From the IMG/VR virus record IMGVR_UViG_3300009788_000040, positions 1-47,188 of that record: a DNA stretch of 47,188 bases; one strand, 5' to 3'. The translations under genes were made by a program, and so were the position numbers. Shown piece by piece: positions 5,958-40,042 of the stretch. The DNA is from a virus. Every line of letters starts with the position of its first letter. The stretch's first letter is position 1. Under the pieces are notes generated by a model that had not been told where the DNA came from, did no database searches, and worked only from the letters and a program-made list of their open reading frames with translations.

Positions 5958-6353
5958 TTAATTGCCTGGTTTACCGTTCCAAAATGCAGGGCCACCATGC
6001 TTTTCAACCATATAAGCGTAAGTTGCTGCTCGTCTTCTCATTAAAAATATTGGTTTATACCATTTTCTGCGCTTGTTTATGAGCCGATTAATGTTATTTA
6101 AAAATGTTCGATCAGCTTCTTCTTTATCCTCAATTACACTGCCTTCGTGATACATCCAGTCATGAATATGACAGGCTTCACCAACATAAGTACCGTAAAT
6201 TTTATCAGGTACAAAATCAATCTTGGCACTAGCAGAACCACAACCGTTGCAGTGTTCAGCAAGTATTTCAATCGGTGTAGTTTTGAAAGAAGCAGGTGCA
6301 TAAATCGAACCTACTTTAGACAAACTAATTGCTGAAATAAGTCCTTTTTTCAT
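5958..6353 (-). CDS. phospholipase A2-like protein in the lysis cassette
   Basis: 131 aa. The pattern is that of phospholipase A2: a Gly/Cys loop resembling the Ca2+-binding loop (CNGCGSA, residues 35-41), a PDKIYG step, then the catalytic-type dyad in ACHIHDWMYHEG (His-Asp near residues 64-65), followed by EEADRTFLNNI, where PLA2s carry a conserved Asp in the next helix. Only a few Cys are present, so the disulphide-rich animal form is not expected; bacterial and parvoviral PLA2-like domains share this economy. The first 20 residues are weakly hydrophobic (MKKGLISAISLSKVGSIYA), possibly a poor signal. The ATG overlaps the M15 peptidase stop (ATGA). The predicted role is hydrolysis of membrane phospholipid during lysis or entry; this is inferred from motif and position. 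Confidence 0.68.
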   Translation of the reverse strand: MKKGLISAISLSKVGSIYAPASFKTTPIEILAEHCNGCGSASAKIDFVPDKIYGTYVGEACHIHDWMYHEGSVIEDKEEADRTFLNNINRLINKRRKWYKPIFLMRRRAATYAYMVEKHGGPAFWNGKPGN

Positions 6354-6676
6354 AGCAAATTATCCCTTCGTTTTGGTTGCCACTCCATATGGAAATGATT
6401 GCCTTCATAAATAATATCAATATCTGGGTTATTACCAAGGGCTATTTTACAAAAACCTAATATATCTTCAGGACGTTCAAAGCTTCTTGATCGTAAGTCA
6501 ACGGCTCTACCATCATAGTGTAATGATTTCTCACCGTGGCGTGTGGTTTCTTCTGATCCAGATGTTATGACAGCTTCTTGACCCTGTTCCTTCATCACCT
6601 GATCGACAATAATCAATGCAAAGATTATCTCAGGAACAAAGCCCTTAATACTGACTGTTTCATCTTTGAGTCTCAT
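6350..6676 (-). CDS. M15 family zinc peptidase, probable endolysin
   Basis: 108 aa. It resembles the D-Ala-D-Ala carboxypeptidase/VanY-like M15 fold used by many phage endolysins to cut peptidoglycan cross-peptides. Visible metal-site motifs: TRHGEKSLHYDGRAVDLRSR (the SxHxxGxAxD signature, His near residue 53, Asp near 60) and the C-terminal HFHMEW (His near 95-97). There is no signal peptide, so export would need the neighbouring membrane protein. The length is short but complete for a single-domain M15 lysin. The gene begins two bases after the upstream stop and overlaps the PLA2-like gene. A virion-associated peptidase is less likely given its place at the end of the late operon. Confidence 0.82.
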   Translation of the reverse strand: MRLKDETVSIKGFVPEIIFALIIVDQVMKEQGQEAVITSGSEETTRHGEKSLHYDGRAVDLRSRSFERPEDILGFCKIALGNNPDIDIIYEGNHFHMEWQPKRRDNLL

Positions 6677-6990: not shown

Positions 6991-9900
6991 TTAGTTTTGG
7001 GTATCACCACTGTAGTAAAATACATCTTCAGCAGTGCTTTGTAAATGAGTAACAGCATGTTGCTGATTAGTTCTTAAACGACCCGACCTGGAATTAACAG
7101 TAGTACCCGATGGTGTTACTGTAACAACTCCCAGGCCTTTCTGTATGATATCACAATTAAAATCACCTAAACCAGCAGGAACAGTAAGAGTAATAGCAGC
7201 AGCATTATCGAAGGTCTGGGGCCTCTTATTGTCGTTTCTTTCAAGAGTATAGGAGGTTCCTGTATGAACACCAGTATCATCAACACCGTTGTCTATACCT
7301 TCCTCAGTATCAAAAGTTATAGTAACTTCCCCACCCGCGAGTGAAGTAGAGGTAGTACGAAGAACAAAAGTATTACCCACAGGTTCATGATAGAAAGCTA
7401 TATTAGTAGAAATGTTACCTATATCTGTAGCTAATACAACAGGGTTGACAGAACTGATTAAATCTAGTTCTTGGCTGTTAGAATGCCAATAAAACTTAAG
7501 TTGCTCGTTACCTAACTTAACTTTAATAGTGCAATCAAGTTCAACGAAAGTGAAAGTCTCATTATATGCTTTATTATCTTCAATGAAAGTCTCAAACACA
7601 AGTGTAACTAAGTGATCAAAAGGAGTAACTAAACCCGTATTTATCATCTTTCTAAAATGAGCTTTCCATTTTGTAGGATCGATAGAGGGTATCTGGGATA
7701 GATTCAATGGGCTATTAATCTCAAAATCAAATTTGTCAGCAGTCCAGACTTGAGGGAAGATCCTATAAACATCACCAACTTCAAAGTCATTATCTGTACC
7801 ACCTTGCAAACCAAGTGCCATCACCAAGTTATCAGCATCTGTGATAGAGGAGATCCTACCCCATGAATCATCAGTAATGTTTCTAACGACATCACCTATC
7901 TGAACATTATTATGAATGACATCGTACCCATCGGATGCATCCCATTGGTTATCAGAACCATTTTCTAATGCGCCGGTGAGAGTCAATTGAACGTCACTGT
8001 CCACTGAGAGAACAATACCATCTGATCCATCAGTAGTATTTAATACTGTATCTCCTTTTACGGTGATGGATAAGAAAGTGGCAGCAGAGTCAATAAGTAC
8101 CTCCCCTGCAACATCAGGAGTAGTCACCGTACCTGTCTCAACTGTAGATTGAAACTCTGTTTCAGATGAAACATCAGTCAAGGTAACAGAGGTTCTATAA
8201 TCTCCTGAACCAGAAGCCCCAGACGCATTAAGTGGTGCATAAACATAATAGACATCACCGATAACAAAGTCATTATTGTTACCGTCAGCATCACCACCGG
8301 CGAATAGTCCACCCGATGTGAGTCGTAAGGTGTTTAAATCAGTTACTGATAATACCTCCCCTCTTGCTCCTGTAGTCTGATTAACTGCAATCCAACCAGC
8401 AGCTACACCGTCAGATACAAAGTCAGCAGTAGAATCTATAACATCTTGACTAGATCCATCTGCGCTATCAGTGGTGATAGTCGATGTGGAAGGTGGTGTA
8501 AAGAGAGGTGCTATATAGGGTAAACCTACTGTCTGCAATGGCTTCAACTTATCAAAAGCAGTTACAGCCGCTACATTAGAATGCTGAGTAAAGTTACATC
8601 CTATGACTTCAATATCAGTACATTCCCGATTTCTCCATGGAGTGAATCTGAAAATTGTATTACAGTCTCTGATCTTAACTATTTCCATTTTAGGTAAGTC
8701 AAAAGAATATCGGCTAGTTAAACCACCATCATTCAAAATATCTTCATGAGTAAAGCTATGTTCAATATTTTTAAATAGTGTATTTTTAAATGTAATAATA
8801 GGGAAACCATTTGGATCAGTAAGAGTACCAAATACACTACCTAAAACAGCATCAGTACTATATACATTATGGAGTTTATAATCTTGGAATATCCAGTTCT
8901 CTTGAGAAGCTTCCCCAGGAGTAGCAAAGGCTGTGGTATCAAACTGAGGTACATTAACAAATATCCCAACTCCAGCAAACTCCGTAGTACCTTCTATGAA
9001 TCTACAATCTTTATTTTTCCTGTTAATGCTTAAGCAGAAACGACCAGTGTTACCATTGGTCCTGGTACTATACAAACCTTTAAGTAAGCAGTCAGCTTGT
9101 GAGTAGAAAGCCCAGTCAGAAGCAGAATCATTTGTTCCTCTATGGGAGCAGTCTTGTATAGTGTTGTGTTGTCTATACGTTTCTGGATAAGCAGCTAAAT
9201 CAATCTTAATCTGATGTCCACCACCACCACTAATTCTATCATGGCTGTTCTGTATAATAGCATTACCCGACTGATTGTATAGAGGTCTTTCATGTACACT
9301 TCTGCCGCCAACATTATCTATAACAAGTTGGTTATTATGATGAGCTTCAACAAGCAATGAATCTAACCCCGCTATTGTCCTGGGTGAAGCATGTGTTTGC
9401 TGTACCCACCAAGCTGCTTGAGCAGTAGAGTTATTAATCCTAATGTTTCTACACTCACCGGTAGCGAATGTCTCAGTGAAGTCAGAAGCGTTACCGTTTC
9501 TATCTTGGTCAAAGACCGTTAGCTGAACAAGTAGCTCACAGTTCTGACCTTCGACATCTATGACCTTATGTTTGGCAGTTCCTAAGCCAGAAGCAGCAAC
9601 TTTCGGTGTGATAGTGATACCTCTTGCAAAACCTCTTACCTTTATGTGGCTAACATCAATATCGTCACCAGTGAATCTGATTACCCTGGCTGCTCTTGAC
9701 TGGTCTACATCAGTTGGATCTTCCCAACTATCTTTATTAGAATAAGTGGTTAATGCAGTGAAAGATGTTTTGTTTAACTTAACAGTTTCCATAGTTGTTA
9801 AATTATCAGTATCTCGGTATACAGGCTTACCAGCAGAGAGTAAATCAGCAGGTGTCAATTTACCTCCTACCTTAACAAAATCAACATTGTTTAAAATTAA

Positions 9901-10668
9901 ATTAGTAGGACCACCGATATAGGTGAGTTCGCCGCCACCATTAACAACAATAGTCGCACCGTTACCTTCAATGAAGTTGATGTATAAAGTATTACCAACG
10001 TCTATGGTAACGTGGTATATTTTTTCTGCTGTTAATTGTAGGCTTGTGATTACCCCTGCCATCAAATCAGCAGCAGCAACAGTAAATGCTACAAGGTTAT
10101 CTGTGCCATCATCACCTACACCACCATACGTTTCAATAAAAACAATGCCGCTAGTGGCGGGAAGACTAGATCCTGATGTGTTTTCTAAACCACTCAGGTC
10201 ATCTTTCCATCGTAAGAGCAATCCTGCAACGGGGTCATCTAGTGTTAAAGGTAAGTCACCACTGTAAGATATTGATACAGAAGGGCTTCTGGATTTTTCG
10301 TCAAGTAACTGCTGAATTAAAAATGTTAACTTATCCATTGCATTTTCATGCAAGTCAGGGAAAAAGGCACCTTGAGATGAAAAAGCAGTTAACTGAGTTT
10401 CTTTGTAATCTGAACGGATATACCATTCAAAGTTTAGTGGTAAAGCACCAGCAACACGTACTATTGTACCCCCTGGATCATCACCTATACCTAACACAGT
10501 ATAATCAGTGTCAACGGTCAATAGTGTCTCAACATCAGAGTCATCAGTCTCATAAACACTTAGTTGTGTTTTATCTTCCACTTTGAAAGTATAACTGAAT
10601 GTGTCTGCTATACCATTACCAGGATAAGGCCCCGATGTAATGTTAGTAGTATTTACAGTCAAAGTCAT
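6991..10668 (-). CDS. tailspike / tail fibre with T7-like N-terminal anchor
   Basis: 1225 aa. The N-terminal 150 residues match the particle-anchoring domain common in podovirus fibres (GNGIADTFSYTF, LLTVDTDYTVLG, DYKETQLTAFSSQGAFFPDL, MDKLTFLIQQLLDEKSRSP). A long Asn/Gly-rich central part follows (about 150-730) with the repetitive short strands of a right-handed beta-helix, the fold of polysaccharide-degrading spikes. Residues about 735-970 hold three related modules built on a GDVYxIxP-type pattern (IGDVYYVYAP, IGDVVRNITD, VGDVYRIFP). The C-terminus (RPQTFDNAAAITLTVPAG, then QHAVTHLQSTAEDVFYYSG) is a widespread phage fibre end domain. It should bind and perhaps digest the host surface glycan. 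It is the last virion gene before the lysis cassette. Confidence 0.87.
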   Translation of the reverse strand: MTLTVNTTNITSGPYPGNGIADTFSYTFKVEDKTQLSVYETDDSDVETLLTVDTDYTVLGIGDDPGGTIVRVAGALPLNFEWYIRSDYKETQLTAFSSQGAFFPDLHENAMDKLTFLIQQLLDEKSRSPSVSISYSGDLPLTLDDPVAGLLLRWKDDLSGLENTSGSSLPATSGIVFIETYGGVGDDGTDNLVAFTVAAADLMAGVITSLQLTAEKIYHVTIDVGNTLYINFIEGNGATIVVNGGGELTYIGGPTNLILNNVDFVKVGGKLTPADLLSAGKPVYRDTDNLTTMETVKLNKTSFTALTTYSNKDSWEDPTDVDQSRAARVIRFTGDDIDVSHIKVRGFARGITITPKVAASGLGTAKHKVIDVEGQNCELLVQLTVFDQDRNGNASDFTETFATGECRNIRINNSTAQAAWWVQQTHASPRTIAGLDSLLVEAHHNNQLVIDNVGGRSVHERPLYNQSGNAIIQNSHDRISGGGGHQIKIDLAAYPETYRQHNTIQDCSHRGTNDSASDWAFYSQADCLLKGLYSTRTNGNTGRFCLSINRKNKDCRFIEGTTEFAGVGIFVNVPQFDTTAFATPGEASQENWIFQDYKLHNVYSTDAVLGSVFGTLTDPNGFPIITFKNTLFKNIEHSFTHEDILNDGGLTSRYSFDLPKMEIVKIRDCNTIFRFTPWRNRECTDIEVIGCNFTQHSNVAAVTAFDKLKPLQTVGLPYIAPLFTPPSTSTITTDSADGSSQDVIDSTADFVSDGVAAGWIAVNQTTGARGEVLSVTDLNTLRLTSGGLFAGGDADGNNNDFVIGDVYYVYAPLNASGASGSGDYRTSVTLTDVSSETEFQSTVETGTVTTPDVAGEVLIDSAATFLSITVKGDTVLNTTDGSDGIVLSVDSDVQLTLTGALENGSDNQWDASDGYDVIHNNVQIGDVVRNITDDSWGRISSITDADNLVMALGLQGGTDNDFEVGDVYRIFPQVWTADKFDFEINSPLNLSQIPSIDPTKWKAHFRKMINTGLVTPFDHLVTLVFETFIEDNKAYNETFTFVELDCTIKVKLGNEQLKFYWHSNSQELDLISSVNPVVLATDIGNISTNIAFYHEPVGNTFVLRTTSTSLAGGEVTITFDTEEGIDNGVDDTGVHTGTSYTLERNDNKRPQTFDNAAAITLTVPAGLGDFNCDIIQKGLGVVTVTPSGTTVNSRSGRLRTNQQHAVTHLQSTAEDVFYYSGDTQN

Positions 10669-10701: not shown

Positions 10702-13700
10702 TTATTTACGCTCTGGTCCAAATAAGAATTGATGCAGTGTTAACTCTTCACCTTCTACAATGACCTGATGTAAATGCTCACCTGTTGCCCACGCTTGACC
10801 TGTACCTGGGATACCTAAAGCGGCACCGATGAACTTGGTTGCGCCTTTAACCTGACCCTTTGTAATTTCTTCATCAGTGAAGCCACGTTTAACCACTTCT
10901 GGAATGGACCGTGTACCTTGTTCAAGTATAGCTTGTAACGGTGATATATTGTAACCAAAGTCACTAGTGACAGCGTTAGCAACATCACGGACAAAAGGAA
11001 TCGATTGAACCGGATACAGTGCAGTGGCTATCAACATTTTCTGGGTTATAGTTTCCTCATCATCATCTTCTTTGGCAAATTCTCCACGTAACAACATCTC
11101 AAGCAACACTGGGATGGTGAACATGAACATTGCTTTAGCAGCTACATTGGTTGTTGAATATCTACCCGATCTGGCACCTTTCACCAGGTCACGTTCCATA
11201 TTCCACAGTGAACTGAAAAATGTCATGAACATGGTGAACATACGACCTGTCTCACTTTGACCACGCATGACACGAGCCATATCTTTCGTAGCACCTGATC
11301 CTTGAACGTTCTCAATCACCCAATCAGCGTACTGGAAAGCACGAGTTTCATCGCCCCAGGTATCCATACCCTTTATATATGCAGCGTGCCAACTGGGTAA
11401 GTCAACCAAGAACGTCTGGATCAAAGCAATGTGTTTCATTGAGGCTTCTTGTGCAGCAGCAACTATGCCACGTTTACTTGCAATACGCTTCATTGCATTC
11501 TTAATCTCACGGTCCATTGTTCCTGGTCGATGTTCAAGCACTTTAGAATTCTCAACAGCAAAATCCCACGCCTGTCTCATAGTTGTTGTGCTACCCAGGA
11601 TACTGCGCATAGCCTGGTACATGTTACCCAGACCCACTTCAGCAATGCTATTAGACAGACCCAGTAGCTGAATGATGCCTGTGGACGCTTTGAAGCCCAT
11701 AGCACCAAGGGTCACACCAAAACGCAACCTTTGCAGTATGTCATCCCAGAACATCTTCGTAGGGGCCTCACGACCATCTTTAGCGATGTCATTAAGCCAC
11801 GGTTTCAGCTGTGCATACTCTTCAGGTCCTAGTTTCTCTTTAATCGTTTTAGCAACACGCTGGTCACGGGTCAATCGGTTAATCTCACGCACTGGATCAT
11901 GATGAGTAATGTAGTGAATAGCCTCTTGGAAATGAGCAGGTACCACATCAAGACTTAATCTGATTGCGTCATAGAACCCGGTACGCTCATTCGTAGAGCC
12001 TGTGTTCACCGAAGTCTGAATACTGGCGTTATTGCTGAACATCGATTCTGTCTCAGCGTTCAATCGGTCTTCATTCTGTGCTGCTTTGTGGCTCCTGTTA
12101 GGGTCATACTTGATAGGGTAGTACCCGCCTTTGAATGTACCAAAGGGTGTTTCAACAGGTGTTGCTTCAACTTTAGGTGGCACTAGGCCAGTTGTACGAC
12201 GGTGCACCTCAGACAGTTGTGGGTAAAGTGTTTCCATCTGGTCCCAAATCATCTGAGCTAGTTGCCAGTCTGATTCAGTCATGTGACTCAAGACAGCTTG
12301 TAACTTTGGATTTTGTAACGTGATTTCAGCATCGATATCTGGGTCTGCCCACTGCTCACCGAGTAGTAATTTTCTCAAGTTACCAGCATTACCTGTGTTC
12401 AATGCAACTGCAATAATCTGATGACCATATAAGTTATCATCAATCTCAGGGATGTATATTTTTCGATTGTGACGCTTCATGTCTTCTTTGCTACGACCCA
12501 AAATGGCGTCCATAACAGGCTTCCCTGCTTTATTCCACAGTTTAATCTCAGCGTCATACGCATCAGTGAACGGTTGAACCAGGACCTGATGACTGATACC
12601 AGCACGTTCACCACCGTCGAGCCATGAAGCCAACACAGGTATCTTGGTCATCTGAGCCATTAACCAACGACCCCATTTTTTACCTTCAACTACATCAGTA
12701 CGTTTTGATTTGAACCGGGTTTTAACCTTCTCTTCCATGCTGGTAACCCAACGATTAACCAGTTTATTGAATTCGATTTCTTCACCCATACGAGTTAATT
12801 TGTTCGCGTACCGGGCAACATGCTCAATGTTCTTCACTGAGTCATTGATGCCCTGTAAGTCGCTGTGAGCAACATTTTTCCAATGGGTGACAAAGGACTC
12901 ATTCAACACTGCATTGTGCAGCACAAGGCCGTCACCGTCGATTTCCATACGTTCTTTTGACCAGGTGTTAATGTCTTGGTTGATTTGATCAACAGATGTC
13001 AGTGTGGCTGATTTTCTGAATTCAAAGCGTTCGAGTATTTTAACTATCTGGTCCCAGTAACCACCTTCAGCTTTCTGAATTTCTTCACGTACTTTTTTCT
13101 TATTGTAACGTGACATCCTGTCAACGATTTTCACGGTATCATTTTTCGCTTCAGTTGCAGCTATGCCAAGATAATAATTCAACACCTGGCGTGCTTTAGC
13201 TTGTGCAGCACCTTCTTTGTTTCCTTCAGCCAACATACGAGCAGATTCTTGTGCTGCTCTGATTTCAGCTTTGCGATATTTACCTGGATGAATTTCACGG
13301 AATGATAAATTACCAATACGATCTTTTGAAATCGATTTCATTGTTTGACGATCAAGTGTTCGCTGATTCGTGCCACGGGCAAGTATCTTCAACTCGTGCA
13401 GAATTAACTTACCACGTTCTTCATTTTGCACAGCTTCATCAGCCTGTTGCTCAATGGTACCATCAGTAAATATATCACCGTGACGTTCAAGCATTCGTGA
13501 CTCAGCATTACCTTCAGCAGTCTCTTTTATTGGTGGCGCAGTAGTCAGGTCAGTCAGCATCTCTGAGCCTGAGTTATAACCGAAGAAAGCAGCAGCTTCA
13601 TCGGGGTGTACACCTTTCTGACCTTTTGCAGTCAGACCACGTAATTTATCAGAGATGCGTATAGATGTGCGACCCAGTTTATCGGTGCGTTCTTCACCAA

Positions 13701-16700
13701 TCATTTCTTTCACGGTGGCGTGATCCAGTTTAATATCACCATCGCGCAGTCGTGTGCCAGTGCTGTATACCTGTTCAGTTTTTAACCGGTCCAGTTCTTC
13801 ATCAATCAAATCAGCTTTCTCTTCTTTCCACCACGCTTTAGTTTGACGAGTGAGTTGTTTGATTAATTTTTCACGTAGAGTTTCAGACTGTACATCTTTA
13901 ACTTTCTCTTGACGTTTTTCATAGTCAGTGAATTCCGCTTCAGTCATACCTGCCATGGCAGCATCAGTGAACATTGGTTCAACTCGTGCACGTGACTCAG
14001 CAGCAGCAATCTGTTCTTCAGTTGCCAGTAACCGGTCAAACACTGCACGCATCTCAGCGTCAAGGTTGACTTTCAAATCACCACGTAGAGCTTGGTAGAT
14101 TTGAGCAAGCCAACGGGCAAACGTTCTGAATGCATTACGCAACTCAATACTGGGTGCTTTACCTTCCATCAAATAGGTTTCAAAGCCACGGGCAAACTGT
14201 TCATGTACAGCACGACGGATAGCTGAATCTTTATCCTTGCTACCTGATGACTCAGTATCAAGATAATTGACAACATCTTCTTCAGTGATTTTTTGAGGTG
14301 CTTCAGTGTCACGTTCACCTTGTTTCAATACGTCAAAATCACCGTCGAGATATATAGTAGCCTCTTTCGCCACCGCTTCAGCGTTACGCTTATACCAGTT
14401 GTTGATACTCTGGTTCATGTCAGTGTTACCCTGCGCTTCCATCTCATACATAAAGTGTGCAAACTCATGCAGGAATGTAGACAGGTTAGACGATTCAGTC
14501 AGTCGTATTACACTGTTTGCGGGGTCGTAGTAGCCACGGGCTTCTTCACTGTCTGGTTGAGGTTGTCTGAGAGCCTCTTGCTGGCTGTCTCGCTCAACTT
14601 CAGGAACTGCTCTCGTTCCTTTGAACCCTTGGTAGACGCTTTCTGATATTGTATTTTTTTCGAACTCATTTTCTAAAGCCTCCTTAACTTCAGCTTCCTT
14701 GCCAGTATAATCAATAGTTTTAAGAAATTCTATATCTGCTGGTCGAGAATTATCTTTACCTCGACTATTATCAATGACCTGTATCTGAACAGATTCATTA
14801 TCTTCATATTTCTCTGACAATTTTATAATGGTGTCAGTGGCTCCTATGTGGGTGTTAATATGCTCCTCAATGGGCACTGTACGACCACTACCGAAATTTG
14901 CTTCTTGTCTCATAGCTCTCGGTAACGCACCATTCACCAAAGCCTCAACAGGCTCCCGGTAGACCATGACTATCTGAACATCTTTGCCAGCATTAAGTGC
15001 TTGTTTAATTTTACTATCAGCACTTTCAAATTTATTCATATTGGTGTCAAAGACAACCTGATAGTCTTTAGTTACAAACAGACCGTCAACTGAACTTGAT
15101 TTACCAGCACCTGTGCCACCGGCTGTGAATAATACAGCAGGTAATTCGCCTGGTTTGGGTTCTTCTGCAAGTTTTTGAGTGTAACGTTTTTTTATGAATT
15201 CACTGGCTGGTTCATGAACTGCTGCTGATTGTGTTCTATCAGCAAGATAAACGTCTGATAACTCTCTAGCAGTGTCAGTGTTTAATATTTTTCCATTCTT
15301 TGATTCGGGGTTATTATCGTATTGTTCAACAGCAGCAGGAAAATCTGACTCTATTTGCTCTCTGAATTCAGTTTCAATTTGTTCAACAGGTAACTGAGTC
15401 AACACCTGCTCACCTTCAAGACGTGTCAATTCGCCGGTCTGTGGTCCTTCAACAACAAAACCTAATGACTCATATACCTCATTGACGGTTTGACCATCAC
15501 GACGTGCTTTAGCTGTCACCCATGCTGGCATGACTTGTGCCATAACCGAAGCGTTAGCAGCATTCACAGCACCACTGTCAATCAACTGCTCACGTAAATT
15601 AGTGTAGGTTTCCTGGGCCTCAACGTACTCAGAAGCATTCTCTTGAGCTTCAGCCATAATAGTATCAACATAGGCTTGAGTTTCTTCACGATGTTGTTCT
15701 TCACGGAAAGGTGATATTGTGTCTTCACTCAATGTCATATGTTCACGTAACTCAGTGAAATGCTCAGTACCAGCAATATCCCCGGTGAACTCATCAATTG
15801 AGATAGCCGCATCAGCACCTGTTGCTTGAGATTCTTGTACAGCGTTACTCAATGTCTTCAATGCTGGATCAGCTTCAATCTCTTCAGGGGTCTTTTCTTG
15901 CAGATAAAGCGTAGTCTGCACAGCGTCGATGAACACGTGAGTGTCAGTAGTATCTGCTTCTCTGATAAATTGCTTAAATGATTCAGTAGCAAGTTTTCTA
16001 AGTTTCGATTTTTCAGAGTCTTCATTCAGCTTGTCAATGTTACGTTGCTCAATGTCACCTTGAGTCTCTTTTTCAACCTCAGTCTGAGTCAATTTAGCAA
16101 TCGTTTTATTGACAGCAGTTGCAGCAGTGATCTGAGTACCACCCGCAACTATAGTCGCAATAGCAGTGACTGCTTGACGACGTAGTTGAATGTTGATTAC
16201 TTCTTCAGCACCTTGAGCATTTTGCAGTTCTTCATCTAACCCGAACATAACTGAGTTAAGTGTCTGTAATGCAGTAGCAAGCTGCTCAGTACCCATTTCT
16301 TGTACGACAAATTTCAAAGCCTCTTTTTTCAGACCTTTACTTTTGCCGGTCAATATTCGTTCAAGGGTGCCTGTAGGTAATAACTCAGTACCCACTTCAA
16401 TCGCTGCATCGATACCGGCGAACCATTGTGCCTCTTCCGGGGTTAGCCCATCAGCACGACCTTCACCGTATGAGCTTGCAAAAGTCTGTGCACCAATAGT
16501 GATCAACAACGGTGCTGCACGACCACCGGACAACAACATCAACCCGAACCCAGGTGCCATATTAGCAAGTGACTCAACACCTGCACGCACACCCTCCTGA
16601 ACTATATTCAAATCTTCAGGGGTTAATGTTTGTCGTTCTTTTTGAAGTTCTTGAATTTCACCCAGGAGCCTGTCAGTTGCTTGCTGTTTAGCTTCTGCAA

Positions 16701-17238
16701 GCTGCTCATCAGTTTCAATGCCAAAACTGGCAGCAAACTGCTCTGACACCTCTTGTGGGTCAATGCCAAGGGGTAAAGCAGACGGTGGTATCAAATCTTG
16801 AATACGAGTCGCTGTGTCATCTGTACCAGCTAACTGAAGACCCTTACCCTGGATGTCAAAACCTATGCCGATTGATCGACCAATACCCCTGAATGTCTCT
16901 TCAAAACCTTCAAGCAGACCGTCAATGACATCTTCCTGGGCAATGACTGGATTGTTAACATCATCAGTGAGAAATTTAGAAGTAGCCGGTGAACGCTCAA
17001 CCATGCCCTCAAGATTAATTTGGTCTAGTTTAAGTTTCTGTTCAACCTGTTCAGGATCAGACTTAACTGCGAACTCAGGTACACCAGATTGTTTACTGAG
17101 GTTAGTGACTTTTGCATGTTGGTCAGGGTTGACTTTCAAAGCTTCAGTCATGCTGGCGTTCAATTGTGTCTGTCGCTGACTCTCTTCGTTTATCCCAAAG
17201 CTACCGAGGTCAATCTTCTCAAGGTCTAATTCTGGCAT
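10702..17238 (-). CDS. giant internal virion/ejection protein with zeta-like kinase and HExxH motif
   Basis: 2178 aa, at the position of T7 gp16. I see no lytic transglycosylase motif. Residues about 690-830 look like a zeta-toxin/polyvalent-protein kinase: LFTAGGTGAGKSSSVDGLF (Walker A about 703-712), FDTNMNKFESADSKI, VMVYREPVEALVNGALPRA, GRTVPIEEHINTHIGA and QVIDNSRGKDNSR. Shortly after, HEFAHFMYEME (about 922-932) is an HExxH zincin motif. The rest is helical and Glu/Lys/Gln-rich. The last 450 residues include hydrophobic stretches (AKAMFMFTIPVLLEML, about 2035-2050). The architecture fits large polyvalent proteins that travel with DNA into the cell. It starts at the stop of the upstream core gene (TAATG). 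Functions of the enzyme domains are inferred. Confidence 0.85.
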   Translation of the reverse strand: MPELDLEKIDLGSFGINEESQRQTQLNASMTEALKVNPDQHAKVTNLSKQSGVPEFAVKSDPEQVEQKLKLDQINLEGMVERSPATSKFLTDDVNNPVIAQEDVIDGLLEGFEETFRGIGRSIGIGFDIQGKGLQLAGTDDTATRIQDLIPPSALPLGIDPQEVSEQFAASFGIETDEQLAEAKQQATDRLLGEIQELQKERQTLTPEDLNIVQEGVRAGVESLANMAPGFGLMLLSGGRAAPLLITIGAQTFASSYGEGRADGLTPEEAQWFAGIDAAIEVGTELLPTGTLERILTGKSKGLKKEALKFVVQEMGTEQLATALQTLNSVMFGLDEELQNAQGAEEVINIQLRRQAVTAIATIVAGGTQITAATAVNKTIAKLTQTEVEKETQGDIEQRNIDKLNEDSEKSKLRKLATESFKQFIREADTTDTHVFIDAVQTTLYLQEKTPEEIEADPALKTLSNAVQESQATGADAAISIDEFTGDIAGTEHFTELREHMTLSEDTISPFREEQHREETQAYVDTIMAEAQENASEYVEAQETYTNLREQLIDSGAVNAANASVMAQVMPAWVTAKARRDGQTVNEVYESLGFVVEGPQTGELTRLEGEQVLTQLPVEQIETEFREQIESDFPAAVEQYDNNPESKNGKILNTDTARELSDVYLADRTQSAAVHEPASEFIKKRYTQKLAEEPKPGELPAVLFTAGGTGAGKSSSVDGLFVTKDYQVVFDTNMNKFESADSKIKQALNAGKDVQIVMVYREPVEALVNGALPRAMRQEANFGSGRTVPIEEHINTHIGATDTIIKLSEKYEDNESVQIQVIDNSRGKDNSRPADIEFLKTIDYTGKEAEVKEALENEFEKNTISESVYQGFKGTRAVPEVERDSQQEALRQPQPDSEEARGYYDPANSVIRLTESSNLSTFLHEFAHFMYEMEAQGNTDMNQSINNWYKRNAEAVAKEATIYLDGDFDVLKQGERDTEAPQKITEEDVVNYLDTESSGSKDKDSAIRRAVHEQFARGFETYLMEGKAPSIELRNAFRTFARWLAQIYQALRGDLKVNLDAEMRAVFDRLLATEEQIAAAESRARVEPMFTDAAMAGMTEAEFTDYEKRQEKVKDVQSETLREKLIKQLTRQTKAWWKEEKADLIDEELDRLKTEQVYSTGTRLRDGDIKLDHATVKEMIGEERTDKLGRTSIRISDKLRGLTAKGQKGVHPDEAAAFFGYNSGSEMLTDLTTAPPIKETAEGNAESRMLERHGDIFTDGTIEQQADEAVQNEERGKLILHELKILARGTNQRTLDRQTMKSISKDRIGNLSFREIHPGKYRKAEIRAAQESARMLAEGNKEGAAQAKARQVLNYYLGIAATEAKNDTVKIVDRMSRYNKKKVREEIQKAEGGYWDQIVKILERFEFRKSATLTSVDQINQDINTWSKERMEIDGDGLVLHNAVLNESFVTHWKNVAHSDLQGINDSVKNIEHVARYANKLTRMGEEIEFNKLVNRWVTSMEEKVKTRFKSKRTDVVEGKKWGRWLMAQMTKIPVLASWLDGGERAGISHQVLVQPFTDAYDAEIKLWNKAGKPVMDAILGRSKEDMKRHNRKIYIPEIDDNLYGHQIIAVALNTGNAGNLRKLLLGEQWADPDIDAEITLQNPKLQAVLSHMTESDWQLAQMIWDQMETLYPQLSEVHRRTTGLVPPKVEATPVETPFGTFKGGYYPIKYDPNRSHKAAQNEDRLNAETESMFSNNASIQTSVNTGSTNERTGFYDAIRLSLDVVPAHFQEAIHYITHHDPVREINRLTRDQRVAKTIKEKLGPEEYAQLKPWLNDIAKDGREAPTKMFWDDILQRLRFGVTLGAMGFKASTGIIQLLGLSNSIAEVGLGNMYQAMRSILGSTTTMRQAWDFAVENSKVLEHRPGTMDREIKNAMKRIASKRGIVAAAQEASMKHIALIQTFLVDLPSWHAAYIKGMDTWGDETRAFQYADWVIENVQGSGATKDMARVMRGQSETGRMFTMFMTFFSSLWNMERDLVKGARSGRYSTTNVAAKAMFMFTIPVLLEMLLRGEFAKEDDDEETITQKMLIATALYPVQSIPFVRDVANAVTSDFGYNISPLQAILEQGTRSIPEVVKRGFTDEEITKGQVKGATKFIGAALGIPGTGQAWATGEHLHQVIVEGEELTLHQFLFGPERK

Positions 17239-18869
17239 TATTCTACTGCCTGTCGTTGAGCTTTCGCAAGATTATCAGCAGTTACAGGAATATTGTTGTC
17301 ACGTAGGAACTTACTCAATACTCTCAGGTTCTCAGGTGGTATATCTGTGACCTTCAATTCTATATCTGGCGCAAAAATATCAACACCAATAAAACTACGC
17401 TGAATAGTAACTTCACGAGTCAAATCAGACAACACATTGGTGAACTCTTCAGAGGTCAATGGGTCACCTTTTTGGCTTTCACGATGTCTCACTTCACCAT
17501 CGAGCAAGTCATAAAATGCATTTGCTTTTTTACGTTTGTCATCATTCCATTTAACCTTTCTACCTAAAATCTGCTCAACAGCAGCAGTAGTCTGTGCACC
17601 ACGAGTACGACCTACCTGGTGTTCTATCTTGTCCTTTGACGAACCAGTACCCTTGGCACTTTTAACAGCACTGATTAATTTAGTACGTTCAGCAGGAGCA
17701 AGCTGATGGAAGTGTTCAGCAGGGTTAACTTTACTCAATTCTTTTTTAGGTAACGTCATCAATTCAGAATATTTATTCCAATCAGTGACAATCGCTTTAC
17801 CTGAGTCAATGCTACGTTGCTGCTTTGCAGATAGTCGTTCCCAACCTTCAGGATCTTGAGCCTGGTAAGTTTCAGCAGAACCACCTTCAATAATATGTGA
17901 TTCAGCACGCTCAAATGCCTCAGTTTGGTCTTCAGTTTCACCTTTCTTTTTCAGGTCGAATTGACGCATTGTTTCAGTCATTGTTTTCTTACGAAGTTCT
18001 GGATCTTCAATCTTGTTAACTTCTTCACGCAACTCTTCACGACTGTCAAAAGTGTCAACCAAAGCAGCACCTGCAATGATTGCTTGTTGAGAATCAGATT
18101 GTATTTTTTCAGCTTTGGCTTTAGCATCAATCTCTTTTTCCAGTTTTACTTTGTCAGGTCCTTCTAGCCTGTCACCATGCTTTTCCATCATCGCAGAACC
18201 TTCAGCAGCACTGCTGTTAGTAGCAGATGAAATGGCTGCTTTTGCAAATGATGAATCAAAAGTTTGCAGTCGTTCGTTTTTCGCTTCAGCACCGATACCT
18301 TCAGCATCAGCAGCGTCAATAACTGCCTGACGACCTACAGCATTCTGAACAGCTAACTGGTCCGGTTGATTCCAATACAAAGAAGCATTCTCCATAGTAT
18401 TTTCAACCTGTGCACGAAGAGTAGCAACCTCCCAGGCTTTCAACCCTTTAGCTGAATGTCGTGCGATATCTTGTTGACCCCGGGTAATGTGCACATCAGC
18501 AGATTTATCAAACATTACTTTAGAATTCTGATTCAGTGTTTCACCGTATTGTTTCTTCAGGCCAGTCAAAGCTTCATTTGCTGCATTACCACTGTCAAAA
18601 GCGTTCTTACCTTGGGTATTGAAATACCCTTTTTCAGGATCAAAGAACAAGTTATTTTTATCACGTTCAAACTGTACCAGTGCTTCTTCAGCAGAGGTAG
18701 TATCAATACGTTGTTTTATACCAGCAGCGGCTTTACCTAATGATGCAAGACCTTGTGTAGCTCTAATATTCGATTGGAAAGCAGCAACACCTGCTGAAGC
18801 ATCAGCACGAGGTTGTCTGACTACATCAGTAAGAACTTGATTACCTTCATACTGTGCGACTTTAGGCAT
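17238..18869 (-). CDS. internal virion protein, helical core component
   Basis: 543 aa, almost entirely helical and rich in Ala, Lys, Glu and Gln, beginning MPKVAQYEGNQVLTDVVRQP. It has no enzyme motif. The N-terminal pattern (FQSNIRATQGLASLGKAAAG, then EALVQFERDKNNLFFDPEKG, then FNTQGKNAF) is typical of T7 gp15-like ejection proteins of podoviruses, which build the inner core and enter the host envelope with the DNA. Synteny supports this: it lies between the gp14-like protein and the giant protein, with both junctions in the TAATG overlap. Role by family resemblance and position. Confidence 0.75.
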   Translation of the reverse strand: MPKVAQYEGNQVLTDVVRQPRADASAGVAAFQSNIRATQGLASLGKAAAGIKQRIDTTSAEEALVQFERDKNNLFFDPEKGYFNTQGKNAFDSGNAANEALTGLKKQYGETLNQNSKVMFDKSADVHITRGQQDIARHSAKGLKAWEVATLRAQVENTMENASLYWNQPDQLAVQNAVGRQAVIDAADAEGIGAEAKNERLQTFDSSFAKAAISSATNSSAAEGSAMMEKHGDRLEGPDKVKLEKEIDAKAKAEKIQSDSQQAIIAGAALVDTFDSREELREEVNKIEDPELRKKTMTETMRQFDLKKKGETEDQTEAFERAESHIIEGGSAETYQAQDPEGWERLSAKQQRSIDSGKAIVTDWNKYSELMTLPKKELSKVNPAEHFHQLAPAERTKLISAVKSAKGTGSSKDKIEHQVGRTRGAQTTAAVEQILGRKVKWNDDKRKKANAFYDLLDGEVRHRESQKGDPLTSEEFTNVLSDLTREVTIQRSFIGVDIFAPDIELKVTDIPPENLRVLSKFLRDNNIPVTADNLAKAQRQAVE

Positions 18870-19420
18870 TATGTTGCTCCAAAGAAATTAGGACCAAGAT
18901 CAGTAGCTAAAACACTTGTTCCTGCGTTTGCTGCACTATCAGGGGTGAACCATTTGTCAGCAACACCTGACCCTGCTGCTACACTAACACCTGCCAACAG
19001 TGTACTAAACGCACCACTTTGTCCTGCGAATTCTGCGAACTCACCTTGTTGTCGTGTTAAATCAGCACCTGTCTCCAATGCTTCAGCACGTCTTTGAAAA
19101 TTACTACGAATACGCAACGCATCAGCTTCACCCAGTGTTATTGTATTTTCTTGTAATTGCAATGGTGAACCTGATGTCAAATCAACATTTGCAGCGCCCA
19201 ATTGTGCACGCTGTTTAGATAATAATTCTGCTGTTTTACGACGTTGAATATTTTCACGTTCAACCCCTGCACTACGGGTTTCTTCTGCTTCGTTTTCAGC
19301 AACACGAGCATTGTAGTCAGCAACCCCTTTTTGGAATTTACCTTGTTTTAGTTTCTGATTTGCTGTGAAAGCAGCAGAGACAACTGCTGTCACTGCCATT
19401 ATGGTGGCTGGATCACACAT
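18869..19420 (-). CDS. T7 gp14-like internal core protein
   Basis: 183 aa. It starts MCDPATIMAVTAVVSAAFTA, the short hydrophobic head typical of gp14-like podovirus proteins. A long helical Ala/Glu/Arg-rich middle follows (VADYNARVAENEAEETRSAG, then RRKTAELLSKQRAQLGAANV and DLTSGSP). The C-terminal part is Gly/Ala-rich and hydrophobic (FSTLLAGVSVAAGSG). In T7 this protein forms part of the channel through the outer membrane during DNA ejection. Its start overlaps the DUF2833 gene by eight bases, so translation is probably coupled. Confidence 0.78.
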   Translation of the reverse strand: MCDPATIMAVTAVVSAAFTANQKLKQGKFQKGVADYNARVAENEAEETRSAGVERENIQRRKTAELLSKQRAQLGAANVDLTSGSPLQLQENTITLGEADALRIRSNFQRRAEALETGADLTRQQGEFAEFAGQSGAFSTLLAGVSVAAGSGVADKWFTPDSAANAGTSVLATDLGPNFFGAT

Positions 19421-19886
19421 ACTCTACCCTCTCTAAGTGAAATCGATGAAACAACTCACCGGCGGGACCGTGTGGTACTGGCTCATCGATATTAAAACCT
19501 AACCATTTTAACCATCTGACACTGATCCTGTTCTTTACATGAACATAATTAAACAATCTGGGACAAAGAGCAAGCATTTCATCAATGACCGGTGGTGATA
19601 ATTTCAAAAATTCACGTGCATGTTTCAATGCCTGTTCTGTACCTAATAGCCACGGTACCCCGGTACCTGATAAGAAGTCACGTTTTACCAGACCCAATAT
19701 AACACAAGGGATATCATTCACCATGACAACAACAGAATAGTGTGACATCTTCCAACTCTCCATTATAGCTTGTAATGGTTTATATCTATTCGAAGCCCAA
19801 ACTTCATCAGCATCAGCTTGACGCATGTCAGCAGCGATTGAAGCAATCATGCCTATCGTTGGTTTCACAAACTGGATATTAGTCAT
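19413..19886 (-). CDS. DUF2833 family protein (T7 gp13-like), GNAT-fold
   Basis: 157 aa. The pattern matches DUF2833: FVKPTIGMIASIAADMRQAD, VVVMVNDIPCVILGLV, PWLLGTEQALKHAREFLKLS, and the end LFNYVHVKNRISVRWLKWLG with GF. The fold is that of GNAT acetyltransferases. In T7-like phages the gene lies next to the internal core genes and its product helps virion assembly; acetyl transfer has not been shown. Here it stands between tail tube protein B and the gp14-like protein, as expected. It starts at the upstream stop (TAATG). Confidence 0.82.
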   Translation of the reverse strand: MTNIQFVKPTIGMIASIAADMRQADADEVWASNRYKPLQAIMESWKMSHYSVVVMVNDIPCVILGLVKRDFLSGTGVPWLLGTEQALKHAREFLKLSPPVIDEMLALCPRLFNYVHVKNRISVRWLKWLGFNIDEPVPHGPAGELFHRFHLERVEYV

Positions 19887-37052: not shown

Positions 37053-38681
37053 TTATAGTCCTAATTTAAGTGATAGTGATAAGGTATTCATACTGGGTAT
37101 TATACCACTTGCCGCTGTAATTGACATAGTAGTCTGTTTCCAGGTGTCATCTGACTTATCACTGAATTGTATTAATACATCTGTTTCACTACTGGTGTCA
37201 AATATACCACCAGCCAAACCAACGGTGCCAGCAGATGAATATGCAGTATGACCTGTTCCGTCTTCAGCATTTCCTTGTATATCCTCAAGTTCAATTGTGG
37301 TGCCAGTTGGGTTTCTAACGGTGAAGTTTCGTTCATTAAGCTCAGTCATACCAACAACAGCTTTGACTGCGACTACATCACCATCAGATAAACTATTCAC
37401 TACACTCAGCACCACTGGATCAGCTTGAGTCGCTGCTGTTATGGTTAACTTAGGACCACCCGCACTAATAGAAGTAAAATCAGAGGTGTCATAATAGGCT
37501 TCTGATTCATCGGTTACTACAGAAGGAAAGTTTTCAGTGAAGGAGCCTTGATCATTGGCAACATTGGTTAATTCTTTAACTTCCCATCCAGTGACAGGGT
37601 TATAAGCGATAATTAGATCAGCAGTTTCGACATCGTACTGTATCTTACAGCGAACAATATTATTGGTTGAAGTAAGAGGACACCCTTCAGTATCTATTGC
37701 AAATTCTGATATGTTAGGTAGATTAAAAGTACCTGAACCCCCAATTGAATCAACCCCGGTAGCAATAGTTATTGCTGTGCCTGAGAAAAATGTGATAGTG
37801 GCTTCACTGGATGTATCAGCAAAATCTGAAGTTACAAAAGCGATATCCTGCTCACCATCTTTTACAATTCCCGCACCACCGACACCGGTGACACTAACTA
37901 TTGTAGGCCCTGCTACACCTTGTACTGGAAATAATGCAGGCTGTATAGGGTCTAGTATTTGATTAGGTTCACGAACAAAAGACTTAACTTGATCTGCGCT
38001 CCACGGTTTATGAACAAGACCAAGCAATGACATACTGCCAGGGAACTTTGCGCCACTATATTCTCCAACTTGAGCATTTGTGTTAGTTGTCAGATAGTCC
38101 AATACTCCTGTACCAGATGCCTCTTCCACCTCATCAAAGTATATAAATTTATTAGCTCCATCATAAGTAACAATAACCCACACCTCTGTATCTAAGGGCA
38201 GTACTGAAGCAGATTCTATATTTTCAAAGGTTGAGCCATTGTGAGTAAAGAATTGAATCTTATTAGATACATTAACAGTAACCAGCCAACCAGAGCTTGC
38301 ACTTTGCATAGGAGATGCAAATATTGCTCTAAAATCTGTACCAGCAAGAGTTCTTTTAACCTTTGCAAAGAACGTAAACTTAGTAGGTCTAAATACAGAC
38401 TTTAAGTCTGTGGAGCTACCAGTAATATCAAAACTATTAACAGTGTTAAAGTTATATTGAAAACCACTTTTACCAACATCCCTAGGGGGTGTGCCAGAGA
38501 GTATGGCCATTTTTTCACTAGTACCCAAGAACTGTGGTGATACAGGGTTATTAAATAATACTACAGCTACTTTAGCCGTTAACAGCTTACTCTCTCTGTT
38601 AAGCTTAGTCTTAACCGTAGGTTTATGCCTTGGGTCTTTGAGACCTGGATGATATATATTGGGTAATTCGAACATGCCCAT
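37053..38681 (-). CDS. LamG-like virion protein with FCCH-like domain
   Basis: 542 aa. Residues about 85-235 look like a concanavalin A/LamG fold (FTFFAKVKRTLAGTDFRAIF, WLVTVNVSNKIQFFTHNGST, VWVIVTYDGANKFIYFDEVE, MSLLGLVHKPWSADQVKSFV), a common glycan-binding module of phage particles. A middle beta domain follows. At about 430-505 a module with GDVVAVKAVVGMTELNERNF and GTGHTAYSSAGTVG is clearly related to the FCCH-like insert of the tail nozzle. It probably binds host surface sugars or decorates the particle. Two bases separate it from the next structural gene. Confidence 0.72.
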   Translation of the reverse strand: MGMFELPNIYHPGLKDPRHKPTVKTKLNRESKLLTAKVAVVLFNNPVSPQFLGTSEKMAILSGTPPRDVGKSGFQYNFNTVNSFDITGSSTDLKSVFRPTKFTFFAKVKRTLAGTDFRAIFASPMQSASSGWLVTVNVSNKIQFFTHNGSTFENIESASVLPLDTEVWVIVTYDGANKFIYFDEVEEASGTGVLDYLTTNTNAQVGEYSGAKFPGSMSLLGLVHKPWSADQVKSFVREPNQILDPIQPALFPVQGVAGPTIVSVTGVGGAGIVKDGEQDIAFVTSDFADTSSEATITFFSGTAITIATGVDSIGGSGTFNLPNISEFAIDTEGCPLTSTNNIVRCKIQYDVETADLIIAYNPVTGWEVKELTNVANDQGSFTENFPSVVTDESEAYYDTSDFTSISAGGPKLTITAATQADPVVLSVVNSLSDGDVVAVKAVVGMTELNERNFTVRNPTGTTIELEDIQGNAEDGTGHTAYSSAGTVGLAGGIFDTSSETDVLIQFSDKSDDTWKQTTMSITAASGIIPSMNTLSLSLKLGL

Positions 38682-38682
38682 T

Positions 38683-39147
38683 TTAGCTACTCGCTATTTT
38701 ATAAGTAACTGAATCCCCATCTGCTCCACTAGCGGGCATAGCAAAACCTGAATCATTAAGTAATACAAGCCCAATATATTTAGCACTGGTTAACATAGAA
38801 ACAAGAAGATGGACTATAGCATCTGGTCTAGTAGTAACATTATAAATAGTGCTTATAGTCATTAATGGTATAGCATCTTCTATCTTAGCTGCTACATCAC
38901 CAGTATCACCTGTTGGGTCAATATTATCTGTCCATACAGCACCATCTTGTGACTCAACTAAATAAAGTTGATAAGTTCCACCCACAGCTGAAGCATTAAT
39001 GGGTAGAGTTAAATGAATACCGTTAGATAATTCTCCTGCACCAACTATCTCACCAAAGGTTCTAGCCTCGCCATCTGCTAGAGAGGCTAATCTACTTAGA
39101 TTGGCTAATACTGTTTGTGAGCTATATGTAACATCGTTTACCGCCAT
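38683..39147 (-). CDS. hypothetical virion beta protein
   Basis: 154 aa, all-beta in appearance: SQTVLANLSRLASLADGEAR, GIHLTLPINASAVGGTYQLY, LVESQDGAVWTDN, then AKYIGLVLLNDSGFAMPASG. This resembles small jelly-roll-like phage structural proteins that go with LamG-type partners. No enzyme motif. AGGAG seven bases before ATG. Part of the receptor cassette; the function is inferred only from neighbours. Confidence 0.6.
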   Translation of the reverse strand: MAVNDVTYSSQTVLANLSRLASLADGEARTFGEIVGAGELSNGIHLTLPINASAVGGTYQLYLVESQDGAVWTDNIDPTGDTGDVAAKIEDAIPLMTISTIYNVTTRPDAIVHLLVSMLTSAKYIGLVLLNDSGFAMPASGADGDSVTYKIASS

Positions 39148-39173
39148 GATTTTACTCCTAACCTATTAATTCT

Positions 39174-40013
39174 TTAAAATGGTGATGGATAAGGGTCGCC
39201 ATCATTCCATACGTTAGTATTCCATACCCACGTTGCTGTAGGTGTATCAAAAGAGAAAGCACCAAATACAAAACTTTCTTTTTCAAAGGTATTGCCTGTT
39301 ATTGTTACATTGGTAGGTGTAGCAAAGCTCGTTCCTTTTCTCACATAAAGAGTATATGCGCCACCCGATAACCTGTTGTTTGTAATAGTTACGTTATCAA
39401 TCAACCCAAAATCAGCTTTTACAATCATCGCAGAAGTTTGTCCTTGGTACGGGCCGTCAATTCGATTACCGTCAGTAATCATATTAGACCCATCACTGAT
39501 TTGTAGTCCATCGTTATGGCTACCCCCGGTAATTATATAGCCATGTATATATGAATCAAAGAGGTCTGTATTCGCTCCCCTCTTTATATTGTCATCACAG
39601 TCATGGATATGTAGTCGTGTAAATGTAGCTGATGCACCACTCGTAGAGTTAACCCCATCTGCAACAGCATCAAATACCTCAGTATCTGTTACTGCCAGAC
39701 CATCGCCTGAGTTATGCAGTATACCTCTAAACACGCTTGCAGCATTGACTTTGCATTTACTAATAGTTACGTTTGCGTGATTAACTATTATAGCACCGGT
39801 TACTTCCATGGAGTCTATAACTTGTCCATTGCTGCTAGTATTTATACTCCCTGACGGAGTGAGTGTTGTGCCAGCGGGGACGCCTGTAGTAGTAGCGTCA
39901 GGCCAATCTTCATCAGGTGGTCCTCTACTTGTTGTAGGGTTAGCACCAGAGTAAATAGGATCAGTATCTTGCCGGGTCCATACACCTCTGATTTGCACAC
40001 CTGGTAATGACAT
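39174..40013 (-). CDS. right-handed beta-helix protein, possible second tailspike/depolymerase
   Basis: 279 aa. After a short start (SLPGVQIRGVWTRQD) residues 60-270 show the repeated short strands of a parallel beta-helix: GAIIVNHANVTISKCKVNAA, AVTDTEVFDAVADGVNSTSG, FTRLHIHDCDDNIKRG, DSYIHGYIITGGSHNDGLQI, DNVTITNNRLSGG and NVTITGNTFEKE. This is the pectate-lyase/depolymerase-like fold. The SHNDG loop is the sort of site where acidic active residues occur, but I cannot prove catalysis. ATG 40013 is chosen because AAGG lies eight bases before it. It heads the cassette. Confidence 0.72.
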   Translation of the reverse strand: MSLPGVQIRGVWTRQDTDPIYSGANPTTSRGPPDEDWPDATTTGVPAGTTLTPSGSINTSSNGQVIDSMEVTGAIIVNHANVTISKCKVNAASVFRGILHNSGDGLAVTDTEVFDAVADGVNSTSGASATFTRLHIHDCDDNIKRGANTDLFDSYIHGYIITGGSHNDGLQISDGSNMITDGNRIDGPYQGQTSAMIVKADFGLIDNVTITNNRLSGGAYTLYVRKGTSFATPTNVTITGNTFEKESFVFGAFSFDTPTATWVWNTNVWNDGDPYPSPF

Positions 40014-40042
40014 ATTAATTACCTTGATATAATTTAGCACCA

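What the first reader, a model, noticed from the sequence alone, without database searches (positions are those of the whole stretch)
10702..17238. Giant ejection protein carries a zeta-toxin-like kinase and an HExxH motif
The 2178-aa protein at the T7 gp16 position has GGTGAGKSS, FDTNMNKFESA, YREPVEALVNGALPRA and VIDNSRG in the order of zeta-like kinases of polyvalent proteins, and HEFAH about 210 residues later. A kinase plus metallopeptidase packed in the virion would enter the cell with the DNA and could act on host UDP-sugars, defence proteins or the phage's own protein. No transglycosylase motif is visible.
Basis: partly seen in the sequence, partly recalled or inferred. Interest (0 to 1): 0.83.

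Follow-up and report, generated by a model that had tools for sequence, protein, structure and literature searches.

The report
Phage injection protein with swappable cargo
A giant protein that a relative of Vibrio phages probably injects with its DNA has one plug-in position; here it holds an intact kinase of the kind that poisons cell-wall precursors, while close relatives hold other enzymes or nothing, and the plug-in is bracketed by a recurring three-residue motif that looks like a cutting site.

Summary
The kinase is real: Pfam Zeta_toxin E 2.5e-10; AlphaFold model (pLDDT 89) best matches gonococcal zeta1 (E 1.4e-13); catalytic residues invariant in 82 relatives. HExxH is invariant in 40 aligned relatives, but its zincin fold found no structural match.

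The main result is different. Residues 616-885 are a cargo slot. Vibrio phages 68-83% identical on both sides carry other cargo (one a GNAT), and MZH0603 carries none. Across 78 slots Pfam finds ART (21), PBECR5 (10), GNAT (7), GGDEF (6) and others. HExxH belongs to the constant chassis.

Cargo edges coincide with a tripeptide [LFY]-x-Q: 60/66 relatives downstream (shuffle mean 9.3), and upstream conservation stops at the Q. With kinase or ART cargo the motif occurs mainly where the HExxH module is present (5/5 vs 3/26; 16/30 vs 4/33).

I read this as an injected polyprotein whose HExxH module may free the cargo. Iyer et al. (2017) predicted injected zeta kinases and zincin processing; the slot, its empty allele and the site-like motif are what I could not find described. 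Packaging, cleavage and substrate are untested.

The parts
10702..17238 (-). Whole ejection-type protein, 2178 aa (P0001)
   Evidence: PHROG 9880 over 176-2159
15394..17238 (-). Constant N-terminal part, aa 1-615, 68-72% identical in Vibrio phages
16879..17160 (-). LPD22 domain (large polyvalent protein associated), aa 27-120
   Evidence: Pfam PF18834, E 2.1e-14
15394..15402 (-). LTQ tripeptide (aa 613-615), upstream edge of the cargo; conservation among relatives stops at this Q
14611..15393 (-). Cargo: zeta1-type (rewired) P-loop kinase, aa 616-876
   Evidence: Pfam PF06414; AF2 pLDDT 89; Foldseek 6eph E 1.4e-13
15274..15276 (-). D655, equivalent of catalytic Asp56 of gonococcal zeta1
   Evidence: 82/82 relatives; alignment; residue role in PMC5923241
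15097..15120 (-). Walker A GGTGAGKS aa 707-714, with K713 = K115 of zeta1
   Evidence: K713 82/82
14563..14571 (-). LRQ tripeptide (aa 890-892) in a predicted disordered linker (877-900), downstream edge of the cargo
13849..14535 (-). HExxH module, aa 902-1130, constant in all relatives
   Evidence: AF2 pLDDT 85; no Foldseek match
14455..14469 (-). HEFAH, aa 924-928
   Evidence: HExxH invariant 40/40
14320..14328 (-). LKQ tripeptide (aa 971-973): empty second slot inside the HExxH module; seven relatives carry a second cargo here
14173..14205 (-). HEQFARGFETY, aa 1012-1022, candidate third zinc ligand helix
   Evidence: H127, E128 and E135 of A5 invariant
10705..13848 (-). Constant helical body, aa 1131-2178
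17238..18869 (-). gp15-position protein, 543 aa, without the lysozyme/SLT insert of relatives
18869..19420 (-). T7 gp14-like internal virion protein
   Evidence: Pfam PF24072 E 2.2e-8; phrog_418
19413..19886 (-). T7 gp13-position protein
   Evidence: phrog_308 E 3.7e-39
6991..10668 (-). Tail fibre/spike protein downstream, as gp17 in T7
   Evidence: phrog_1640 and others

Best explanation
This is an injected polyprotein with an exchangeable payload. A constant chassis (aa 1-615, and 886-2178 including an HExxH module) sits at the T7 gp16 position and is expected to leave the virion with the DNA (inferred from gene order). One slot between the two chassis halves holds the payload, here an intact zeta1-type kinase. 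The payload is bracketed by [LFY]-x-Q tripeptides, which I take to be cut after Q, most likely by the chassis's own HExxH module, so that a free ~30-kDa kinase is released in the cell. There it most likely phosphorylates UDP-activated sugars and so drains peptidoglycan or LPS precursors early in infection. Shown by computation: the slot, the empty allele, kinase fold and invariant catalytic residues, and the motif with its co-occurrence with HExxH. Inferred: packaging, injection, cleavage, the identity of the protease, and the substrate.
For: Slot: four Vibrio isolates match aa 1-615 (68-72%) and 886-2178 (72-83%) but not 616-885; MZH0603 joins the two directly and reads RLEGEQVLTQ|PDTSGARGYYDP. 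Contents of 78 slots: ART 21, PBECR5 10, GNAT 7, GGDEF 6, others, zeta 1. Kinase; D655, K713, D731, R774, R786 in 82/82. Motif: 60/66 at the downstream edge vs 9.3 shuffled (max 21) and 7 and 6 in control windows; other third residues 4-8. Upstream, conservation stops at Q. Second slot bracketed the same way. Co-occurrence with the ST..HE..H module: kinase cargo 5/5 (4 independent) vs 3/26; ART cargo 16/30 vs 4/33, p 0.0009. The downstream site lies in a predicted disordered linker. Neighbours are gp13/14/15-position and fibre genes.
Against: No virion proteomics for this phage. The HExxH model found no structural match and P0001 has no Pfam peptidase hit, so protease activity is unproven. [LFY]xQ is short and also occurs elsewhere in the protein at chance level, so cutting would need exposure as well as the motif. 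Three of 23 close relatives lack it at the upstream edge. N4 vRNAP, with a similar layout, is reported to be packaged unprocessed (PMC5512222). The zeta1 contacts to UDP-MurNAc (K59, N75) are R658 and S671 here, so the substrate may differ.
Confidence: 0.5

Rival explanations
1. The kinase acts as cargo but stays tethered: the protein is threaded whole, like N4 vRNAP, and [LFY]xQ marks flexible hinges between beads that ease threading, not cut sites.
For: N4 vRNAP has the same layout (N-part, enzyme, HExxH domain, helical C-part) and is described as beads on a string (PMC12633501); N4 lacks [LFY]xQ at its cargo edges.
Against: A hinge needs no fixed Q or bulky residue two before it; E, N, D, K, R, S, T at the same place stay at 4-8 of 66 against 60 for Q; the motif tracks the HExxH module.
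Confidence: 0.25
2. [LFY]xQ sites are real but are cut by a host protease or another phage protease; HExxH acts on host proteins or is structural.
For: Zincin fold not confirmed. Iyer et al. 2017 also propose that some of these domains act as effectors (PMC5512222).
Against: Motif present across phages of Vibrio, Bordetella, Pseudomonas, Caulobacter and Cobetia, which argues against one host enzyme; no prohead protease recognised among the structural genes scanned; co-occurrence with HExxH.
Confidence: 0.15
3. The kinase modifies something other than UDP-sugars (a nucleotide, NAD, a defence signal or a protein), as the zeta-like AvrRxo1 differs from zeta.
For: K59R and N75S relative to zeta1, kept through most of the viral family; AvrRxo1 is among the weaker structural matches; cargo elsewhere in the slot acts on diverse targets.
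Against: Closest fold and sequence match is a UDP-sugar kinase; catalytic Asp and P-loop kept.
Confidence: 0.35
4. The kinase stands in for the missing wall-cutting (transglycosylase) domain and weakens the wall for DNA entry, as suggested for zeta domains by Iyer et al.
For: gp15-position protein lacks the lysozyme insert; the published prediction (PMC5512222).
Against: MZH0603 lacks both the insert and any cargo, and other Vibrio relatives lack the insert yet carry other cargo, so a wall function of the cargo is not needed for entry in this clade.
Confidence: 0.1

Closest known systems
Polyvalent proteins of phages and conjugative elements (Iyer et al. 2017, PMC5512222)
   Same: Large virion-locus protein, LPD22, mix of unrelated enzyme domains, HExxH module; zeta-like kinases and zincin processing were predicted there.
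   Different: That paper's main text, as searched, gives no cleavage-site motif and no fixed exchange slot or empty allele; its zeta examples are conjugative elements and MuF fusions, not podovirus gp16-position proteins.
Gonococcal zeta1 kinase (PDB 6eph/6epi, PMC5923241)
   Same: Rewired order (catalytic Asp before the P-loop), fold match E 1.4e-13, catalytic Asp and Lys kept.
   Different: No C-terminal OB domain, no adjacent antitoxin, sugar contacts K59 and N75 replaced by R and S; part of a virion-locus protein.
Coliphage N4 virion RNA polymerase (PMC12633501)
   Same: N-part, enzyme, HExxH domain, large helical C-part; injected giant protein.
   Different: Cargo is an RNA polymerase; no [LFY]xQ at its edges; HExxH regions align only weakly (hhalign E 0.0057, probability 6.5%).
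T7 gp16 and Bordetella phage BPP-1 Bbp10
   Same: Same gene position; Bbp10 is homologous (29% over 900-2144) and carries PBECR1 in the slot.
   Different: No sequence match to T7 gp16 structures; no transglycosylase domain.

Membership tests
Zeta toxin kinase family (PF06414) | Pfam match above curated cut-off | tested here: met
   40.6 bits vs 22.3
Zeta toxin kinase family (PF06414) | P-loop Lys and catalytic Asp present and conserved | tested here: met
   K713 and D655 82/82
Zeta toxin kinase family (PF06414) | UDP-sugar phosphorylation | not testable with these tools
   Needs enzyme assay
Epsilon/zeta toxin-antitoxin system | Antitoxin gene next to the kinase | tested here: not met
   Kinase is inside a 2178-aa ORF abutting the gp15-position gene and followed by the fibre gene; no separate small ORF on that strand
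zeta1 (C4'-OH) subfamily | Rewired order with catalytic Asp upstream of P-loop | tested here: met
   D655 before G707; alignments; Foldseek TMq 0.73 for 6eph vs about 0.4 for PezT
zeta1 (C4'-OH) subfamily | UDP-MurNAc contact residues K59 and N75 | tested here: not met
   Aligned residues are R658 and S671
zeta1 (C4'-OH) subfamily | C-terminal OB domain | tested here: not met
   Profile match ends at zeta1 residue 265 of 401
Polyvalent proteins | Several unrelated effector/LPD domains in one virion-locus protein | tested here: met
   LPD22 and zeta, virion gene neighbours
Polyvalent proteins | Injected with the DNA | not testable with these tools
   Needs virion and infection proteomics
Zincin-like metallopeptidase | HExxH plus downstream Glu on a second helix | tested here: met
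   Invariant H39, E40, H43 and E135 in 40 sequences, on helices 34-50 and 116-140
Zincin-like metallopeptidase | Zincin fold | tested here: inconclusive
   Best Foldseek E 2.8 against PDB; no sequence match in PDB
MPTase-PolyVal Pfam family | Pfam match | tested here: not met
   No peptidase family at E up to 1
T7 gp16 | Gene position after gp14/gp15 homologues | tested here: met
T7 gp16 | Sequence homology / transglycosylase domain | tested here: not met
   No transglycosylase in Pfam; no PDB match with body profile

The most novel reading that the evidence does not exclude
The HExxH module is a self-processing protease specific for [LFY]-x-Q that releases whichever enzyme sits in the slot, making these podovirus ejection proteins a general plug-in payload system in which cargo exchange is easy because any domain lying between two such tripeptides is freed in the host.
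Probability: 0.35. Interest if true: 0.82.

Novelty: new variant of a known kind. Interest (0 to 1): 0.64.

Why it matters
It turns a loose prediction (phages inject mixed effector domains and process them with zincins) into a concrete anatomy: one slot, natural full and empty alleles in cultivable Vibrio phages, and a candidate cut site predicted at each cargo edge. A protease assay or N-terminal sequencing of virions could settle it. The slot is also a marker for finding phage effectors: unknown slot contents in relatives are candidate anti-host or anti-defence enzymes. The kinase would be an injected enzyme predicted to hit cell-wall precursors, from a viral family of about 300 contigs.

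Tried and rejected
Decay of the kinase: rejected, catalytic residues 82/82. Kinase rare in viruses: the single-sequence search found only one contig, the window's own kinase sequence, but an alignment found 296. Kinase as a substitute for the transglycosylase: weakened, since the empty-slot phage lacks the insert too. HExxH as part of the cargo: rejected, it is constant. N4 vRNAP as a second example of [LFY]xQ: not found at its cargo edges. First count of [LFY]xQ was contaminated by an internal FIQF motif and redone relative to the conserved RG. A general excess of [LFY]xQ in the body: none, ratio 1.01. Fold search of the HExxH domain and PDB search with the body profile: nothing. Searches for papers on Bbp10 or Carin1 virion proteomics gave none showing packaging.
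Full report
Observation. The 2178-aa ORF is on the minus strand, 17238 to 10702. All quoted motifs are present in the stated order; the P-loop starts at residue 707 and HEFAH at 924. Gene order is portal, scaffold, capsid, tail tubes, gp13-, gp14-, gp15-position genes, this gene, fibre. The gp14-position protein scores E 2.2e-8 with Pfam T7_gp14 and E 1.5e-31 with phrog_418; gp13 and tail proteins also match.

Kinase. Pfam gives Zeta_toxin at E 2.5e-10 and, at the N-terminus, LPD22 at 2.1e-14. In the PDB the only strong sequence match is gonococcal zeta1 (E 8e-8 for the domain; 5.7e-16 with a profile of 37 viral kinases). An AlphaFold model has pLDDT 89, and its best Foldseek matches are zeta1 structures (E 1.4e-13, TMq 0.73), with PezT, zeta and AvrRxo1 near E 1e-3 to 1e-4. 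In zeta1 two sequence blocks are swapped relative to streptococcal zeta, and its catalytic Asp56 precedes the P-loop Lys115 (PMC5923241). The window kinase has the same order: D655 aligns with Asp56 and K713 with K115, whose change to Ala abolishes toxicity there. D655, K713, D731, R774, G785, R786, V788 and P789 are the same in all 82 viral sequences aligned. Two zeta1 residues that contact UDP-MurNAc, K59 and N75, are R658 and S671 here and in most of the family, so the exact sugar is open. The paper reports kcat of 200 per second for UDP-MurNAc and 1.7 for UDP-GlcNAc. If the copy number resembles the 4 gp16 of T7 (PMC12633501), only the former rate would move a metabolite pool within minutes (my estimate: about 5e5 turnovers in 10 min against 4e3).

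The slot. The nearest sequenced isolates, Vibrio phages PS25B.1, 1.021.A, MZH0603 and 1.185.O, align to residues 1-615 at 68-72% and to 886-2178 at 72-83%, but not between. MZH0603 has nothing there: its sequence runs RLEGEQVLTQPDTSGARGYYDP. A second contig, L028, is also empty. Phage 1.185.O carries a GNAT, Caulobacter Jess A an ART, Cobetia Carin1 PBECR5, BPP-1 PBECR1, Pseudomonas AF LPD23 and another phage ddrB-ParB. Of 78 slot contents scanned, 21 match ART-PolyVal, 10 PBECR5, 7 GNAT, 6 GGDEF, with MuF-C, LPD3, RadC, nucleotidyltransferases and one zeta. The slot is therefore an exchange site. Since MZH0603 is a complete genome of an isolate, its empty slot is not a metagenome artefact.

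HExxH module. STFLHExxH, and an HExxARGFExY-type motif about 88 residues later, are invariant at their key positions in the chassis of 40 relatives and present whatever the cargo. The model (pLDDT 85) places the first motif on helix 34-50 and the second on helix 116-140, which resembles the two-helix core described for polyvalent MPTases (PMC5512222), but Foldseek finds no match better than E 2.8. I call it zincin-like by motif only.

Tripeptide at cargo edges. Just before the conserved RG that opens the HExxH module, 60 of 66 non-redundant relatives have [LFY]-x-Q within 16 residues. Shuffling gives 9.3 on average and at most 21. The two windows further upstream give 7 and 6, and other residues in place of Q give 4-8. 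At the upstream edge, 20 of 23 close relatives have it. Their shared sequence (consensus GERARLEGEQVL-x-Q) is kept by about 15 of 20 up to the Q and by 4-7 of 20 after it; the L and Q counts themselves are biased by using the motif as anchor. Seven relatives have a second cargo between the two HExxH-module helices, and it too is bracketed by tripeptides of this type (one reads EKQ); the window has a single LKQ there. In the kinase model the linker with LRQ is disordered. The motif is not enriched in the rest of the body (1.01 times expected).

Does the motif follow the HExxH module or the cargo? Among large proteins with the same kinase, it lies just before the kinase in 5 of 5 with ST..HE..H (4 independent) and 3 of 26 without (p 0.001). 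I had seen three of the positive cases before defining the window. I then fixed the rule and tested ART cargo in newly fetched contigs: 16 of 30 with the module, 4 of 33 without, shuffled expectation 6.0 and about 3.4 (p 0.0009). These contigs were not thinned for relatedness, so the p-value is approximate. N4 virion RNA polymerase, similar in layout and reported to be packaged unprocessed, has no such motif at its cargo edges.

Interpretation. The simplest reading is an injected polyprotein whose payload is freed at [LFY]xQ, probably by its own HExxH module, with a zeta1-type kinase as this phage's payload. Iyer et al. already predicted zeta kinases in injected polyvalent proteins and self-processing by their zincins; I found no cleavage motif or fixed slot in that paper's main text. 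Weak points are the unproven protease, the lack of virion proteomics, the changed sugar contacts, and the shortness of the motif.

Wider distribution. The kinase family has at least 296 members in viral contigs. Many are stand-alone ORFs of about 300 aa, in one checked locus close to terminase and portal genes; others lie in large proteins next to virion structural genes. Two further ejection-type proteins (L102, L117) carry kinase and HExxH together. Twenty loci were found in the genome collection, most of them metagenome assemblies.

Noticed in passing
Slots of relatives, among L002-L091: Six of 78 slots hold a GGDEF (diguanylate cyclase) domain and two a RadC domain; an injected cyclic-di-GMP synthase would be an unusual phage effector. 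RadC was listed as found only in conjugative-element polyvalent proteins in 2017.
   Followed up: partly
L195-L273 (ART-PolyVal proteins without the ST..HE..H module): The ART domain is often preceded by [FY]S (PLFSRDRQTETP, KYSRKSQTNSP, VRFSLTSQTNTP) instead of [LFY]xQ, perhaps a second class of inter-domain site.
   Followed up: no
window 17238-18869 versus L006, L008, L010: The gp15-position protein of the Vibrio-phage clade lacks a ~170-aa insert where BPP-1/AF-type relatives carry a lysozyme/SLT domain; no wall-cutting domain was recognised in the ejection proteins here.
   Followed up: partly
window 5958-6353, minus strand: Small protein in the lysis region with CNGCGS...EACHIHDWMYHEG, resembling a phospholipase A2 Cys/His-Asp motif by eye; Pfam gives only a sub-threshold DUF1353 hit.
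   Followed up: partly
window 6350-6676, minus strand: Likely peptidase M15 / hedgehog-type DD-peptidase endolysin (sub-threshold Pfam hits); MZH0603 has a similarly annotated gene at the same place.
   Followed up: partly
L005 around residues 1330-1494: An extra coiled-coil-like insert in the helical body of Vibrio phage 1.185.O without flanking [LFY]xQ, unlike cargo.
   Followed up: no
window 37053-40043, minus strand: Laminin-G/concanavalin-like and beta-helix proteins lying away from the main fibre gene, possible extra receptor-binding or depolymerase proteins.
   Followed up: no
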